64,000 nucleotides of DNA, taken from positions 62,001 through 126,000 of the forward strand of contig NZ_BEWO01000001.1 in assembly GCF_002723975.1 (NCBI RefSeq), in the 5' to 3' direction. Shown here piece after piece: positions 40,102-45,727 of the stretch. Below the pieces are notes generated by a model, which was not told the DNA's origin, made no database searches, and was given only the letters and a program-made list of their open reading frames with translations. The number at the start of each line of letters is the position of its first letter. Position 1 is the first letter of the stretch. Both the position numbers and the translations under genes were made by a program. The DNA comes from Gluconobacter japonicus (GTDB lineage: Bacteria > Pseudomonadota > Alphaproteobacteria > Acetobacterales > Acetobacteraceae).

Positions 40102-40391
40102 GCCGCCTTAATGCCGCATGATTGCGCGTGATACCAGATGCTTGAAAGCCCTTCCCCGTGACAGGCTCCCGGACCCGCAAAAGACTGCCAGAACTTCAAA
40201 TAAAACCAACGCCTCACCATGATATAACGTAGCAGACGGACCTAATACTTCGGGTTTCATCGTACACGAAAAAGAAACGTTTTTTCGTTCAGTCCGATCT
40301 GTTGTAAAGATCTCAGGAACAGACTCTCACGACTGGCTTTTTCTTCTACCGTCAGAGTGATGATCCGATTTTTGATTTCAGAGGACTCTTG

Positions 40392-40985
40392 ATGAAAAAA
40401 CTTCTCATTCCGGCGATTCTGGTCATCGGGCTCATTATCCTGATGGGATCGAACTACAATCGCTTCATGGGTGCAGACCAGCGTGTTCAGGAACAGATGG
40501 GCCAGCTTCAGAACGAAGTGCAGCGCCAGTCAGACCTGATTCCCAATCTGGTTAATACGGTCAAAGGCTATGCCACACACGAGCATGACACCCTGACCGA
40601 CTACGCCGCTGCCCGCTCCGGTGAAACACCGCTGAATCGTATTGATCCCCGTTCGGTCAGTGACGAAGCTCTTCAGAAGAAGATTCTGGATGCCCAGACA
40701 CGCAACGCTCAGGAGATCAAGGCCATCACCGCCGTTGCCGAGCAGTCCCCGCAGCTTCAGGCCAACCAGAACTTCTCAAGCCTGATGGTGCAGCTTGAAG
40801 GCACACAGAACCGCATCACTGTGGCTCGTCAGCGCCTTCAGCAGGCCATTCTGTCCTACAACCAGACGGTCATGCACTTCCCCGGCAACCTTCTCGCCGG
40901 CGTGATGGGCTATCACCAGCGCGTCTATTACGAAGCCTCACCGGCTGCCCAGACGCCGCCCGTCGTCGATTTTTCAAAACACTGA
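40392..40985 (+). CDS. lemA: LemA family protein
   Basis: 197 residues: a short N terminus, one transmembrane helix (KKLLIPAILVIGLIILMGSNYNRF), then long amphipathic helices (QRVQEQMGQLQNEVQRQSDLIPNLVNTVKGYA) with the family motif RQSDLIPNLVNTVK. GAGGA lies six bases before the ATG. It pairs with the downstream TPM-domain gene, the common lemA-TPM arrangement. Envelope protein; exact function not established. Confidence 0.92.
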   Translation: MKKLLIPAILVIGLIILMGSNYNRFMGADQRVQEQMGQLQNEVQRQSDLIPNLVNTVKGYATHEHDTLTDYAAARSGETPLNRIDPRSVSDEALQKKILDAQTRNAQEIKAITAVAEQSPQLQANQNFSSLMVQLEGTQNRITVARQRLQQAILSYNQTVMHFPGNLLAGVMGYHQRVYYEASPAAQTPPVVDFSKH

Positions 40986-40995
40986 CCTGACCGCC

Positions 40996-41838
40996 ATGCA
41001 GACTGTGCTGACCCTGACCCATTCCCTGCTCACGCGCAGTCTGCCTCCTGTGTTCTGTGCGCTCGCCCTGCTGTGCTTTCCCTTGGCGGACACAGCAGAA
41101 GCAGCGCCGCTCACTCAGCTTGTCACTGACCCGCATAATGTCCTGTCAGACGCGGAACGGGACCAACTGGTCGAGAAACTCACGACCCTTCGCGAAACGC
41201 TCCCGAGCCACCCGCATATCCTGATCGATCTTCCCGGCCATGTGGATGACATCGACCAATATGCCAATGAGACTTTCCATGCTTCGGGCATCGGCCAAAA
41301 GGGGCAGGACAACGGTCTGCTGATCGTTCTGGATATTCCGGACACACAGTCCCGCATTGAAGTCGGGTATGGCTTTGAAGGCGATCTGACAGATCTTCAG
41401 ACACACACTATTCTCGTCGCGGCGCGACCCGACCTGAAAGCCGGACACTATGCTGCCGCGCTGAACGGCATGGTCGATGCGATTAGTGAAGCCCTGCGCA
41501 AGAGCGATACCACAGTGCAGGAAACCGCAGCAGCTGACGAAGCGGTCACGTTTTCGAACACGGACATGCTTCTTGGCGGTGGTGGACTGCTACTATTCCT
41601 TTTCGGAACCGTCTTCACGATCCGGGCGCAACGCCGAGCGAGCCGGGGCGAGCCTCTGTCTGGACTGGACCGTTTTCTTATCAGTGTTCCATGGGATGTT
41701 CTTTTGAACCTCCTTATCAACATTCTCTCCGCCGCCGCCCGCAATAACTCTCGCGGAAGCGGCACCTCTGGGAACAGGAACAGCTACAGATCCGGTGGCG
41801 GAGATTCCGGCGGTGGCGGCTCGAAGGACAAGTGGTAA
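40996..41838 (+). CDS. TPM-domain membrane protein (YgcG-type)
   Basis: 280 residues: Sec signal (about 1-36, ending AEA), TPM domain (VTDPHNVLSDAERDQLVEKL, GQDNGLLIVLDIPDTQSRIEVGYGFEG), a C-terminal membrane segment (LLGGGGLLLFLFGTVFTI) and a Gly/Ser-rich tail (SGGGDSGGGGS). This is the standard partner of LemA. It starts 10 bp after lemA. Role in the envelope is unclear; some TPM proteins were described as phosphatases or in photosystem repair. Confidence 0.88.
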   Translation: MQTVLTLTHSLLTRSLPPVFCALALLCFPLADTAEAAPLTQLVTDPHNVLSDAERDQLVEKLTTLRETLPSHPHILIDLPGHVDDIDQYANETFHASGIGQKGQDNGLLIVLDIPDTQSRIEVGYGFEGDLTDLQTHTILVAARPDLKAGHYAAALNGMVDAISEALRKSDTTVQETAAADEAVTFSNTDMLLGGGGLLLFLFGTVFTIRAQRRASRGEPLSGLDRFLISVPWDVLLNLLINILSAAARNNSRGSGTSGNRNSYRSGGGDSGGGGSKDKW

Positions 41839-41849
41839 GGGTCAGAACC

Positions 41850-41877
41850 TTGCCTTAATCCGTTTCCCTCCTATGGT
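41850..41877 (+). promoter_or_regulatory. possible promoter of the DyP-encapsulin operon
   Basis: TTGCCT (41850-41855), 16-bp spacer, TATGGT (41872-41877), 45 bp upstream of the peroxidase start. Moderate consensus match; read-through from lemA-TPM is also possible because no terminator is seen. Confidence 0.35.
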
Positions 41878-41921
41878 GATCTCAGAACGCTTCAACACTT
41901 TGTAAAGAAGATCTGAGAGCC

Positions 41922-42947
41922 TTGCAGAATCCTCAACCTGTCGCAGCAACACTGACCAGTGCCTCTGTTTTCCTTGTCGCGACACTGGATGAAACTCTTT
42001 CCGACGGCACGCAGATCCGCGAGTTGCTCGGGGACATGTCCTCTCTGGTTCGCGGCGTCGGCTTTCGTATTCCCGATGGGCGCCTCTCGTGCGTAACGGG
42101 CATTGGCGCTGACGCATGGACGCGGCTTTTCGGCGCTCCTATGCCCAAGGATCTTCACCCGTTCGAAGCCATCAGTGGCGTTCATGACGCCCCCTCCACG
42201 CCCGGTGACATGCTGTTCCATATCCGTGCTGCGCGCATGGATCTGTGCTTTGAAATGGCCGCCACGATCGCGTCCAGATTAGAGGATGCAGGCAAGATCA
42301 TCGATGAAGTTCATGGCTTCAAATATTTCGATGAACGTGACCTGCTCGGCTTTGTGGACGGAACGGAAAACCCGTCCGGTCAGGCGGCGCTAGACTGCAC
42401 ACTGATTGGCGACGAAGATCCGGATTTTGCGGGTGGTAGCTACGTCATCATCCAGAAATACCTGCATGACCTGAAGAAATGGAACGCTATTCCGACGGAA
42501 GTGCAGGAACACATCATTGGTCGAAAAAAGCTTTCGGATATTGAACTCCGTGAAGCCGACAAGCCCAGCTACGCTCATAATGTTCTGACCAACATCGAAG
42601 AAAACGGCGAGCAGCTTCAGATCGTGCGGGACAACATGCCGTTCGGTGAAGTCGGCAAAGGGGAATACGGCACGTACTTCATTGGATACGCCAAATCCCC
42701 GTCCCGTATCGAACAGATGCTCCGTAACATGTTCATCGGAAAGCCGGTCGGTAATTACGATCGCATTCTGGACGTCAGCCGCGCCGTTACAGGCAATCTC
42801 TTCTTCATTCCCACGGCGGACTTTCTGGATAACGCTCCGGACATGCCTGCCCCTTCGGCTGAACAGTCCCCTGCTCCCGCGCAAGCTGCCACAGCTTCAA
42901 AACTCTCCGGCTCACTAGGTATCGGTTCGTTGAAAGAGGATCACTGA
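41922..42947 (+). CDS. dye-decolorizing peroxidase, encapsulin cargo
   Basis: 341-residue heme peroxidase of the DyP family. GFVDGTENP (143-151) carries the catalytic Asp; His219 in SYAHNVL is the likely proximal heme ligand, and Arg236 in IVRDNMPFG the distal Arg. No signal peptide, so cytoplasmic. After the enzyme a Pro/Ala linker (about 306-327) leads to a C-terminal peptide SGSLGIGSLKEDH, which matches the cargo-loading peptide that docks DyP inside type 1 encapsulin shells. The start is TTG 41922 with GAGAG before it. The shell gene follows after one base. Confidence 0.95.
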   Translation: MQNPQPVAATLTSASVFLVATLDETLSDGTQIRELLGDMSSLVRGVGFRIPDGRLSCVTGIGADAWTRLFGAPMPKDLHPFEAISGVHDAPSTPGDMLFHIRAARMDLCFEMAATIASRLEDAGKIIDEVHGFKYFDERDLLGFVDGTENPSGQAALDCTLIGDEDPDFAGGSYVIIQKYLHDLKKWNAIPTEVQEHIIGRKKLSDIELREADKPSYAHNVLTNIEENGEQLQIVRDNMPFGEVGKGEYGTYFIGYAKSPSRIEQMLRNMFIGKPVGNYDRILDVSRAVTGNLFFIPTADFLDNAPDMPAPSAEQSPAPAQAATASKLSGSLGIGSLKEDH

Positions 42948-42948
42948 C

Positions 42949-43749
42949 ATGAACAATCTCTACCGTCATCTCGCCCCTATTTCGACAGCCGCTTGGGCGC
43001 AGATCGAGGATGAAGCCTCCCGCACGCTGCGCCGCCATCTGGCTGGCCGCCGCATCGTGGACACATCCGAACCCAAGGGCGAAAAATTTTCGGCCGTTGA
43101 AACGGGTCGCATGATCAGCATCGACGCTCCAAACGACGGGGTCAGTGCGTCCCTGCGTCAGGTTCTTCCCGTTGTCGAACTGCGCGTCCCTTTCACGCTT
43201 TCGCGGGCTGAAATCGATGCTGTGGACAGAGGATCAGAAGATTCCGACTGGCAGCCCGTCAAAGATGCAGCCCAGAAGATCGCGTTTGCTGAAGACCGCG
43301 CCATTTTCAACGGCTACGCCCCGGCGGGCATCAAGGGTATCCGCGAAGCAACGTCCAACACGCCTCTCACACTTCCAGCAAGTATTCAGGACTATTCCCA
43401 CGTCATCGCTGATGCTCTGAACGAACTGCGTCTGGCAGGCGTCAACGGACCCTATTCCATCGTTCTCGGCGCAAAGGCCTATCAGGCTGTCAGCGGTGGC
43501 GATGATGATGGGTATCCGGTCCGCAGACATCTTGAGAGCATGATCGATGGCAAGATCATCTGGGCGCCTGCCATTGAAGGCACGTTTGTTGTCACAACAC
43601 GTGGCGGTGATCTGGCACTCGATATCGGGCAAGATTTCTCGATCGGCTATCTGGGTCATACGGCCGAGACGGTTGACCTTTACATCCAGGAAAGCTTCAT
43701 TTTCCGCGTATTGACCAGTGAAGCCACGGTCGCCATCAACCCGGCCTGA
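42949..43749 (+). CDS. family 1 encapsulin nanocompartment shell protein
   Basis: 266-residue HK97-fold protein that self-assembles into an icosahedral protein shell. The family opening MNNLYRHLAPISTAAWAQIEDEASRTL with HLAGRRIVDTSEP is diagnostic, as are AVETGRM, REATSN, SIVLGAKAYQAV and the final ESFIFRVLTSEATVA. The ribosome site AGAGGA (42935-42940) lies inside the last codons of the peroxidase, tying translation of cargo and shell. A bidirectional terminator follows. Confidence 0.96.
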   Translation: MNNLYRHLAPISTAAWAQIEDEASRTLRRHLAGRRIVDTSEPKGEKFSAVETGRMISIDAPNDGVSASLRQVLPVVELRVPFTLSRAEIDAVDRGSEDSDWQPVKDAAQKIAFAEDRAIFNGYAPAGIKGIREATSNTPLTLPASIQDYSHVIADALNELRLAGVNGPYSIVLGAKAYQAVSGGDDDGYPVRRHLESMIDGKIIWAPAIEGTFVVTTRGGDLALDIGQDFSIGYLGHTAETVDLYIQESFIFRVLTSEATVAINPA

Positions 43750-43773
43750 GCCATCCGAAAAACTCCCTGATAC

Positions 43774-43808
43774 AAAAAAAGCCTCTCCGTTTCGGGAGAG
43801 GCCTTTTT
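43774..43808. terminator. bidirectional intrinsic terminator after encapsulin
   Basis: GCCTCTCC (43781-43788) faces GGAGAGGC (43795-43802), with an A run before and T run after. It closes both the encapsulin operon and the convergent sugar transporter gene. Confidence 0.88.
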
Positions 43809-43828
43809 CATGAGAAAGGGGAAAAATT

Positions 43829-45241
43829 TTACCGCCCGATATCCCGCAGGCGATAGCCATTGTTCAGACGACTTTCGATCGTCTCCAGAGAGACACCCTT
43901 CGTTTCAGGGACAAACAGCAGCGTCACGACGATGAACAGGGCGTTCAGACCGGCATAGAGCCAGAAGGTGTTTGAAGAGCCAAGCGTGCTCAACAGGCCA
44001 AGGAATGTCGCACCGACGATGATGTTCGTTCCCCAGTTGGTCACGGTTGAGCAGGTAATCCCGAAATCACGGCCCTGAAGAGGCTGTACTTCGGCGCACA
44101 GGATCCAGATCAGTGGGCCAGCAGAGAAGGCAAAGCCCGCGATGAAGCACAAGAGAACCGAAATGGCGAGGTAATGCGTCAGGGAGCTTGCATGGTCGCC
44201 CATTCCCATCAGCATGGCCAGAATGCCTAGCCCGGCAGCCATAATGGCAAATCCGGCGATCAGCATCGGACGACGGCCCCAGCGATCAGCAAAAGCAATG
44301 GCAATGAAGGTCGCAAGGCAGTTCACCAGACCAACCGTTGCCGTTCCCCACATCTGTCCATCCTGGCCGAACCCGACTTCTGCGAAAATTCGTGGGGCAT
44401 AGTACATGACCACGTTAATGCCCGTGAACTGCTGCACGACCTGCAGGCCAATCCCCAGCATGACAGACCGGCGGAAGTTCGGGTTTTCAAGGAACATGGC
44501 CAGACCGCGCTGTTTGGCCTGCGAGTTCAACTGGTCCCGAATATTCTGGATTTCCGCATGAGCATGCTGATGCGTATGGCGCAGCGTGCTGAGCGTTTTC
44601 AAGGCTTCCTCATCCCGACCGCGCAGCATGAGCCAGCGCGGGCTGTCCGGCAGGAACAGGGAGCCGATGAGAAACAGCGCTCCCGGAACACCGACAATGC
44701 CCAACATCCAGCGCCATGAGCCGCTATAAGACAGGACGGCATTGGATACGAAGGCCAGAAGAATGCCGGTGGTGATCATCAACTGATACATCGAAATCAG
44801 ACTGCCGCGACGGCTCTCATCCGCGATTTCGGAAATGTAGAGCGGAGCGACAAAACTGGCGATACCGATTGCCAGGCCAAGAATGGCGCGTCCGATGATC
44901 AGAATGGCCACCGAGTGCGCAACAGCACAGAGGATCGCCCCGATGACGAACATGGCCGCGCTGTAGGTCAGGGACTTGCGGCGCCCCAGCGCATAGGACA
45001 TGCGGCCTGCGAGCAGGGCGCCAACCGTCGCCCCCACCATCATGGACGACACAATCCAGGACAGTTCGAAATCGGACGCCTGAAACTCGGTCTTGATGAA
45101 GCCCAGAGCACCGGAAATCACACCGATATCCAGACCGAACATCAGCCCCGCAATGGCTGCCAGCGCGACAGCCAGCATCATACGCCCGACCATGGGAGGG
45201 CGTACCGCAACGGGTTGAGCGTGAAATGTTGCATCACTCAT
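43829..45241 (-). CDS. MFS sugar/H+ symporter (GalP/AraE/XylE type)
   Basis: 470 residues, 12 helices. Sugar-porter signatures: GLMFGLDIGVISGAL (helix 1), GRMSYALGRRKSL (2-3 loop), GRAILGLAIGIASFVAPLYISEIA (helix 4), LPDSPRWLMLRGR (6-7 loop), QQFTGINVVMYYAPRIF (helix 7) and FVPETKGVSLETIE at the end. ATG 45241 is preferred (GGAG nine bases before). Likely imports a hexose or pentose by proton symport; substrate not fixed. Confidence 0.93.
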   Translation of the reverse strand: MSDATFHAQPVAVRPPMVGRMMLAVALAAIAGLMFGLDIGVISGALGFIKTEFQASDFELSWIVSSMMVGATVGALLAGRMSYALGRRKSLTYSAAMFVIGAILCAVAHSVAILIIGRAILGLAIGIASFVAPLYISEIADESRRGSLISMYQLMITTGILLAFVSNAVLSYSGSWRWMLGIVGVPGALFLIGSLFLPDSPRWLMLRGRDEEALKTLSTLRHTHQHAHAEIQNIRDQLNSQAKQRGLAMFLENPNFRRSVMLGIGLQVVQQFTGINVVMYYAPRIFAEVGFGQDGQMWGTATVGLVNCLATFIAIAFADRWGRRPMLIAGFAIMAAGLGILAMLMGMGDHASSLTHYLAISVLLCFIAGFAFSAGPLIWILCAEVQPLQGRDFGITCSTVTNWGTNIIVGATFLGLLSTLGSSNTFWLYAGLNALFIVVTLLFVPETKGVSLETIESRLNNGYRLRDIGR

Positions 45242-45336
45242 GGAAAGGAACTCCGGCACCCTCGCAGGACATGCCGCTGAAAGGAAAGAATTGCCCCTTC
45301 GTCATACGACGACTGGTTCATTCGCCCCGTATATAG

Positions 45337-45368
45337 CATTAAATTAGTTACATCATCATAATTTAATG
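45337..45368. promoter_or_regulatory. AT-rich palindrome, operator candidate
   Basis: CATTAAATT (45337-45345) and AATTTAATG (45360-45368), perfect 9-bp arms around a 14-bp spacer, in the region between the divergent sugar porter and entericidin-like genes. The AT richness stands out from the surroundings. Regulator unknown. Confidence 0.4.
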
Positions 45369-45526
45369 TGATTTGTGAGATTTCCATAACTGGAAATCAG
45401 TGTGCCCACCATGACGCATCACAGACATCCCATTTTCCGAACATCGGGAAAAAAGAAAAACGCAACTTTCGGGCAAGACAGGCAGTTATGTCTGAACTGA
45501 AACATTCAGAAGAAGGACATGCCAGC

Positions 45527-45727
45527 ATGACCAATAACCGCAAATCCACGTTCGCCCGCCTGATGCTCGTTTCTGCTCTGCTGACGGGAACGGCTGTTTC
45601 CCTGTCCGCCTGCAACACGACGCGTGGCGCGGGTCAGGACGTTAGCGCCGTAGGTCATGCAACGTCCAACGCAGCAACGAGCGCCCAGCAGGGCATCGCG
45701 AATGCGACTGGTGCATCCACGCACTGA
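45527..45727 (+). CDS. entericidin-like small lipoprotein
   Basis: 66 residues. N-terminal signal with lipobox LSAC, followed by CNTTRGAGQDVSAVGHATSNAA, which closely follows the entericidin A/B pattern (a Cys-N-T-x-x-G start and amphipathic helix). The start ATG 45527 has AGAAGGA nine bases upstream. Entericidins are stress-linked membrane lipoproteins with toxin/antidote proposals in E. coli. Only one copy is seen here. Confidence 0.85.
   Translation: MTNNRKSTFARLMLVSALLTGTAVSLSACNTTRGAGQDVSAVGHATSNAATSAQQGIANATGASTH

What the first reader, a model, noticed from the sequence alone, without database searches (positions are those of the whole stretch)
41922..43749. DyP peroxidase-encapsulin nanocompartment operon
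A DyP heme peroxidase with a Pro/Ala linker and C-terminal SLGIGSLKEDH, directly followed by a family 1 encapsulin shell gene. GSLK-type tails load DyP into encapsulins in actinobacteria and other phyla (established). In an acetic acid bacterium, whose periplasmic oxidases make oxidants, a peroxidase-filled protein shell is an attractive and probably little studied stress device.
Basis: partly seen in the sequence, partly recalled or inferred. Interest (0 to 1): 0.78.

Follow-up and report, generated by a model that had tools for sequence, protein, structure and literature searches.

The report
Peroxidase-filled protein shell in Gluconobacter
This is an ordinary, well-conserved two-gene operon for a heme peroxidase packed inside a virus-like protein shell, already described on paper for vinegar bacteria; the less expected part is that some relatives appear to have thrown the shell away and kept the enzyme.

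Summary
Window 41922-42947 encodes a DyP heme peroxidase (TTG start) with a 24-residue Ala/Pro-rich linker and the cargo tail SGSLGIGSLK; one base after its stop codon, 42949-43749 encodes a family 1 encapsulin shell, followed by a terminator. The heme ligands are present, and so are the five tail-contacting shell residues named in the two cryo-EM papers read. The genome is a Gluconobacter.

The 'periplasmic oxidase' argument is weak: by eye neither protein has an export signal, and the genome has two catalases.

What I add: (1) the operon is patchy in the genus (5 of 26 genomes) and never coexists there with a tail-less, shell-less DyP carried by 12 others; (2) two other Acetobacteraceae (probably Acetobacter) kept the DyP but lost the tail and show no shell gene; (3) in acetic acid bacteria the cargo has TTG/GTG in its start column (47 of 47), the shell ATG (49 of 49); (4) a DUF2934-like gene often follows the shell, not here. 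New member of a known kind.

The parts
41922..42947 (+). DyP-type heme peroxidase, encapsulin cargo, 341 aa, TTG start (end includes stop)
   Evidence: Pfam PF20628 5.5e-57 and PF04261 3.8e-28; PDB 8u4z family 1 encapsulin-associated DyP, E 9.9e-143; proximal His219, distal Arg236 and Asp146 present
42834..42905 (+). 24-residue Ala/Pro-rich linker of DyP (residues 305-328)
   Evidence: variable in length and letters among relatives
42906..42935 (+). cargo-targeting peptide SGSLGIGSLK (residues 329-338)
   Evidence: SGSLNIGSLK is the peptide modelled in the Klebsiella shell (PMC10960027 section 10)
42949..43749 (+). family 1 encapsulin shell protein, 266 aa, ATG start one base after the DyP stop (end includes stop)
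   Evidence: PF04454 1.5e-95; NF041155 1e-103; PDB 9e5e 1.1e-109, 8u50 1.7e-108; predicted fold matches encapsulins at Z up to 23.9
43781..43808 (+). intrinsic-terminator-like hairpin and T-run after the shell gene
   Evidence: 8-pair stem with 6 G-C pairs; fold z-score -2.58
41842..45455 (.). variable segment (DyP, shell, convergent sugar-porter gene) absent at the same site in two other genomes of the genus
   Evidence: flanks match to 41829/41841 and again from 45456 in L250 and L251, with about 1.3 kb of other DNA between; in L250 that DNA holds a 405-aa frame

Best explanation
A canonical DyP encapsulin. The two genes are probably read as one message. The shell protein assembles into an icosahedral T=1 cage of 60 subunits, about 24 nm across. 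DyP assembles into hexamers whose flexible tails end in SGSLGIGSLK; the tail binds a groove on the inner face of the shell, so that one or two hexamers are trapped inside. Small molecules such as H2O2 enter through the shell pores and the heme peroxidase reduces H2O2 while oxidising an unknown organic reductant in the cytoplasm, probably during peroxide and acid stress. Shown here: gene identity, linker, tail, heme ligands, docking residues, shell fold, gene order, purifying selection, terminator-like hairpin. Inferred from solved relatives at 62-63% identity: cage geometry, hexamer, docking. Inferred with least support: co-transcription, the physiological role and the reductant.
For: Family models. 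Best solved relatives are the enterobacterial DyP-encapsulin pairs 8u4z/8u50 and 9e5e; 167 of 266 shell and 213 of 341 DyP positions are identical to the pair on a Klebsiella plasmid. Docking residues R34, R35, D38, D229, S231 all present in the window. The predicted shell fold, of moderate confidence (mean pLDDT 66), aligns with encapsulins at Z 23.9. Tail present in 75 of 75 shell-adjacent DyPs among the 80 loci kept. Whole-genome search finds one shell and no second cargo of the same motif: of 16 exact hits to an I-G-x-L/F-K pattern only the DyP has SLGIGSLK at a protein end. The E. coli relative is most active at low pH and H2O2 is its likely oxidant (PMC12140327 abstract and discussion).
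Against: No expression, particle or enzyme data for an acetic acid bacterium came up in the searches made. No sigma-70-like promoter was found between 41700 and the DyP start. The genome has two catalases, so DyP is not its only peroxide defence. Relatives that have DyP without tail or detectable shell keep it under purifying selection, which suggests that the shell is not needed for all of its work. The AlphaFold model was built from 30 sequences and has stretches under pLDDT 50, one of them (33-56) over part of the docking region.
Confidence: 0.9

Rival explanations
1. A lignin- or aromatic-degrading nanocompartment, as proposed for acetic acid bacteria in PMC8776678 by analogy with Rhodococcus DypB.
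For: Clear sequence relatives in the PDB include DypB (3vef, E 9.1e-112; that it is the Rhodococcus enzyme is recalled); plant-associated hosts and the Rhodococcus analogy are argued in PMC8776678 (passages).
Against: By eye no export signal on either protein, so contact with lignin polymer is unlikely; the variable segment around the operon carries a sugar porter rather than aromatic genes.
Confidence: 0.06
2. A secreted bacteriocin (linocin M18), the label under which the shell gene is often filed.
For: Pfam name Linocin_M18; counted as a RiPP cluster in PMC8776678 (passages).
Against: The protein matches encapsulin shells over its full length and keeps the internal docking residues.
Confidence: 0.02
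3. The shell mainly tunes DyP oligomerisation, stability and dose rather than providing chemistry: the cargo starts at a weak TTG/GTG codon and the shell at ATG, so that few enzymes meet many shell subunits, and lineages can drop the shell and keep the enzyme.
For: TTG or GTG stands in the start column of 47 of 47 encapsulated DyPs of acetic acid bacteria that could be read, and 29 of the 47 have no upstream in-frame ATG; shell start ATG in 49 of 49. Gluconobacter tail-less DyPs have ATG at the start column in 10 of 12. About 12 DyP per 60-mer in Klebsiella (PMC10960027, passages).
Against: 18 of 47 also have an upstream in-frame ATG, so their start is not certain. Outside acetic acid bacteria it is weaker: no upstream ATG in 9 of 19 other proteobacterial and in 8 of 17 readable rows of the mainly actinobacterial set. 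The two in-place losses still have TTG in the column. Rows are related, not independent; no genome-wide TTG rate was measured.
Confidence: 0.3

Closest known systems
Klebsiella pneumoniae DyP encapsulin (PDB 8u4z, 8u50, 8u51; PMC10960027)
   Same: Gene order DyP then shell, tail SGSLxIGSLK, docking residues, heme ligands; 63% shell identity to the pair on Klebsiella plasmid NZ_CP092398.1.
   Different: The Klebsiella operon is flanked by transposases and has FDH and RpoH genes; the immediate neighbours here are a TPM-domain gene and a sugar porter. Linker and last residues differ.
E. coli DyP encapsulin (PDB 9e5e; PMC12140327)
   Same: Closest solved shell by sequence (E 1.1e-109).
   Different: Transposon-associated operon of enterobacteria (abstract); here on a large contig near a glutamyl-tRNA synthetase gene, at a site that is variable in the genus.
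'Linocin M18' encapsulin-DyP cluster of acetic acid bacteria (PMC8776678)
   Same: The same system: an encapsulin plus a DyP, in 55 of 96 acetous type strains.
   Different: That paper files it as a RiPP and proposes lignin degradation; the passages I saw do not discuss tail, linker or shell loss.
Mycobacterium DyP encapsulins (9bkx, 7bok, 7boj)
   Same: DyP cargo in a family 1 shell; 58-59% identity over the aligned shell.
   Different: Mycobacterial operon with overlapping stop and start codons (PMC11676171, passage).

Membership tests
Family 1 encapsulin shell | Full-length match to the family 1 shell model | tested here: met
   NF041155 346.3 bits against cut-off 100, profile positions 1-261 of 261
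Family 1 encapsulin shell | HK97-type fold | tested here: met
   Model of mean pLDDT 66 aligns with solved encapsulins, Z 23.9, 248 residues, rmsd 4.1; phage capsids follow at Z about 12
Family 1 encapsulin shell | Self-assembly into a 24 nm T=1 shell | not testable with these tools
   Inferred from relatives at about 60% identity
Encapsulin-associated DyP | DyP domains with proximal His, distal Arg and Asp | tested here: met
   H219, R236, D146; the first two align with Klebsiella H225 and R242
Encapsulin-associated DyP | C-terminal targeting peptide GSLxIGSLK after a flexible linker | tested here: met
   consensus GSLxIGSL as given in PMC12140327
Encapsulin-associated DyP | Shell docking residues conserved | tested here: met
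   R34, R35, D38, D229, S231; the hydrophobic pocket residues are not named in the sections read and were not checked
Encapsulin-associated DyP | Cargo physically loaded and active | not testable with these tools
   needs purification
Linocin M18 bacteriocin | Secreted antibacterial peptide or protein | not testable with these tools
   No export signal seen by eye; shell fold and docking residues point elsewhere

The most novel reading that the evidence does not exclude
Encapsulation of DyP is an optional, repeatedly lost add-on in Acetobacteraceae: the enzyme is kept, with its heme residues and under purifying selection, while tail and shell disappear together, twice at the original site in probable Acetobacter and perhaps once more in the ancestor of the tail-less DyP of many Gluconobacter. 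The family would then be a natural experiment on what an encapsulin shell is for, with cargo dose set by a conserved weak start codon.
Probability: 0.6. Interest if true: 0.55.

Novelty: new member of a known kind. Interest (0 to 1): 0.35.

Why it matters
What the shell adds to DyP is an open question (the PMC12140327 discussion, calls the logic of DyP sequestration still unclear). Vinegar bacteria with closely related shelled, shell-less and empty states would allow a direct comparison in vivo.

Tried and rejected
Second cargo in the same genome: 16 exact DNA hits to the I-G-x-L/F-K pattern were read (16 of 16; the reversed-pattern control gave 12); only the DyP has SLGIGSLK at a protein end; a 50-aa frame in L006 ends in IGSLKRDPPPT without the first half of the motif, and a 328-aa frame in L191 ends in IGWLKPAPIS. 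The pattern misses variants. One shell only.

Deep origin of the Gluconobacter tail-less DyP by loss: not shown. In the 76-row tree it joins an unresolved base, and a tree with all tailed rows as one clade is not rejected (p-AU 0.27). 37 of the 113 rows were left out there, including the two in-place losses and two long branches (L090, L212). Before, near-copies, second DyPs of a locus, a partial row (L106) and distant DyPs (L213-L217) had been dropped. With the two losses included (39 rows chosen by hand from the 113), one clade is rejected (p-AU 0.00016); that test was made after the first tree was seen.

Exclusivity in the genus (5 shelled, 12 tail-less, 0 both of 26; chance 0.03) ignores relatedness and is weak.

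Accessory gene idea: the two queries match Pfam DUF2934 at 16.1 and 23.8 bits, cut-off 22. The close subfamily (E at most 1.5e-35) occurs in 30 of 59 shelled and 3 of 338 unshelled Acetobacteraceae (Fisher 2e-25, not corrected for relatedness; cut-off chosen and handles typed by hand from the printed tables). By my own reading of the printed coordinates it lies beside the shell in 21 of the 30, elsewhere in 8, unclear in 1 at a contig edge. No cargo tail is seen in the 50 loci printed. The window genome has only a distant copy (41%) on another contig.

Papers (9 of 10 searches; open-licence PMC papers only): encapsulin with acetic acid bacteria gave one paper; encapsulin with DUF2934 none; encapsulin, gene loss, DyP none; encapsulin, start codon, cargo seven, of which two were checked by passage and neither speaks of DyP start choice; encapsulin with TTG two unrelated titles. 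PMC8776678, PMC8346489, PMC11676171 and PMC6934571 were seen as passages only; PMC10960027 as passages and sections 10 and 11; PMC12140327 as abstract, outline and sections 2.5 and 3.

Not run: a DyP structure job, docking of the tail, a signal-peptide predictor, an OxyR-site search.

Full report
WHAT IS THERE. The pair is real and at the stated coordinates. DyP runs 41922-42947 and the shell 42949-43749, with a single base between the TGA stop and the ATG. DyP matches both DyP Pfam domains and the shell matches the family 1 encapsulin model far over its cut-off. The DyP has a 24-residue linker rich in Ala (8) and Pro (5), then SGSLGIGSLK, then EDH. A terminator-like hairpin follows; no sigma-70-like promoter was found in the 200 bases before the DyP. 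The genome is a Gluconobacter: the best shell matches in named genomes are G. frateurii (97%) and G. thailandicus (96%), and some 17 kb around the operon is colinear at 88-89% DNA identity in two other genomes of the genus.

HOW IT WORKS. The nearest solved pairs are the Klebsiella and E. coli DyP encapsulins. Against a Klebsiella plasmid copy the window has 167 of 266 shell and 213 of 341 DyP positions identical, and keeps the proximal His, distal Arg and distal Asp. The peptide modelled in the Klebsiella shell is SGSLNIGSLK (PMC10960027 section 10); the window differs at one position, N to G. Shell residues reported to contact it (R34, D38, D229 in that section; R34, R35, D229, S231 in PMC12140327 section 2.5) are all present in the window; over 101 aligned shells R34, D38 and D229 never vary, R35 is kept in 99 and S231 in 98. 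I therefore take over the published mechanism: a 60-subunit 24 nm shell with one or two DyP hexamers held by their tails. H2O2 as oxidant and activity at low pH come from the E. coli relative. The organic reductant of DyPs is given as unknown there. The shell model made here has mean pLDDT 66 and pTM 0.63 and is used only for the fold (Z 23.9).

HOW COMMON. Of 397 Acetobacteraceae genomes (drawn evenly from a larger group), 59 have a shell and 67 a DyP of this kind (E at most 1e-85); 53 have both. Six shelled genomes lack such a DyP (several are incomplete assemblies), and 14 have such a DyP without a shell; 14 of those 14 read as tail-less. In the 80 best loci kept from the genome collection 75 have DyP directly upstream and 75 of 75 have the tail. 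On plasmids, 63 records have a shell match; the pair is annotated on plasmids of Escherichia, Klebsiella, Sphingobium and others. The acetic acid bacterial cluster itself is in print: 55 of 96 acetous type strains, called linocin M18, with a DyP, read there as a lignin-degradation device (PMC8776678, passages). DyP systems are 1,505 of 2,383 family 1 systems in one survey (PMC8346489, passages). So the finding is a further member of a known kind.

PATCHINESS IN THE GENUS. Five of 26 genomes of the genus have the shell. Twenty-one of 26 have a DyP-domain protein: the five shelled ones; twelve with a DyP about 62-67% identical to the window's that stops where the linker would begin and has no shell in its locus or genome; and four with a more distant DyP. 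None of the 26 has both of the first two types. Two of the twelve look damaged at the N-terminal end (L126, L130). In two other genomes of the genus the flanks of the window operon are present at 80-86% identity, but the segment 41842-45455, which holds DyP, shell and a sugar porter, is replaced by about 1.3 kb of other DNA. Gain here or loss there cannot be told from this.

SHELL LOSS IN PLACE. Two Acetobacteraceae genomes (G030, G272) have a DyP 76-77% identical to the window's, ending without the tail (L195 after a short linker stump, L196 almost at once), and no shell in the genome search. I call them probable Acetobacter from their nearest tree neighbours. Upstream DNA of L195 matches A. 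persici and A. orleanensis, but not A. malorum and A. cerevisiae; that of L196 matches A. tropicalis, A. senegalensis and A. orientalis; these relatives carry tail and shell. Downstream of the DyP, L195 shows no real match to those relatives, so the extent of the deletion is unknown. The trees put both inside tailed groups with starred support, and holding all tailed rows together is rejected (p-AU 0.00016). Their dN/dS against tailed relatives is 0.067-0.081 in four pairs (a fifth was saturated), against 0.045-0.069 between tailed pairs of the same groups, and the heme residues are kept, so the free enzyme seems functional. Caveat: in L196 the contig ends about 120 bases after the DyP stop, so the shell may be broken off by an assembly gap, although none was found elsewhere in that genome.

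START CODONS. In 47 of 47 encapsulated DyPs of acetic acid bacteria that could be read (in two of 49 loci the DyP is cut off), TTG (44) or GTG (3) stands in the aligned start column; 29 of 47 have no in-frame ATG upstream of the core, 18 have one further up. The window has TTG as the only candidate. The shell starts with ATG in 49 of 49. The Gluconobacter tail-less DyPs have ATG at the start column in 10 of 12. Outside acetic acid bacteria the pattern is weaker: no upstream ATG in 9 of 19 other proteobacterial rows and 8 of 17 readable rows of the mainly actinobacterial set. Because synonymous sites are near saturation between several of the Acetobacter species compared (dS about 1 or more), a kept TTG suggests constraint, perhaps to hold cargo below shell. 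This is inference; the rows are related and the genome-wide use of TTG was not measured.

By eye neither protein has an export signal, so the device should act in the cytoplasm. Two catalase genes are present; the PF00141 peroxidase family gave no match.

SCORES. Identity and mechanism are as sure as sequence can make them; physiological role is open. Interest 0.35: the operon is ordinary, the shell-loss series gives it some value.

Noticed in passing
L183 8466-8798, L184 9023-9370 and 18 named loci between L041 and L078: A conserved ~110-aa DUF2934-like gene (16.1 and 23.8 bits, cut-off 22) lies just downstream of the shell in many acetic acid bacterial DyP-encapsulin operons but not in the window; no paper held has both words, encapsulin and DUF2934.
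   Followed up: partly
L206 4416-5510: A second DyP with a slightly changed tail (SLGICSLK) and no shell within its 10 kb, in a genome that has a DyP-shell pair elsewhere: a possible cargo in trans.
   Followed up: no
L126, L130: Two of twelve Gluconobacter tail-less DyP genes look damaged at the N-terminal end.
   Followed up: no
Genomes G014, G113, G177, G190, G285, G311: Six Acetobacteraceae with a shell gene but no close DyP; they may carry another cargo, or the assembly is incomplete.
   Followed up: no
window 40389-41838: LemA and TPM-domain genes just upstream; the TPM gene is found in only 5 of 26 genomes of the genus, three of them with the encapsulin operon. LemA was not searched.
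   Followed up: partly
window 45368-45727: Frame with an entericidin-family match (26.8 bits, cut-off 23.3).
   Followed up: no
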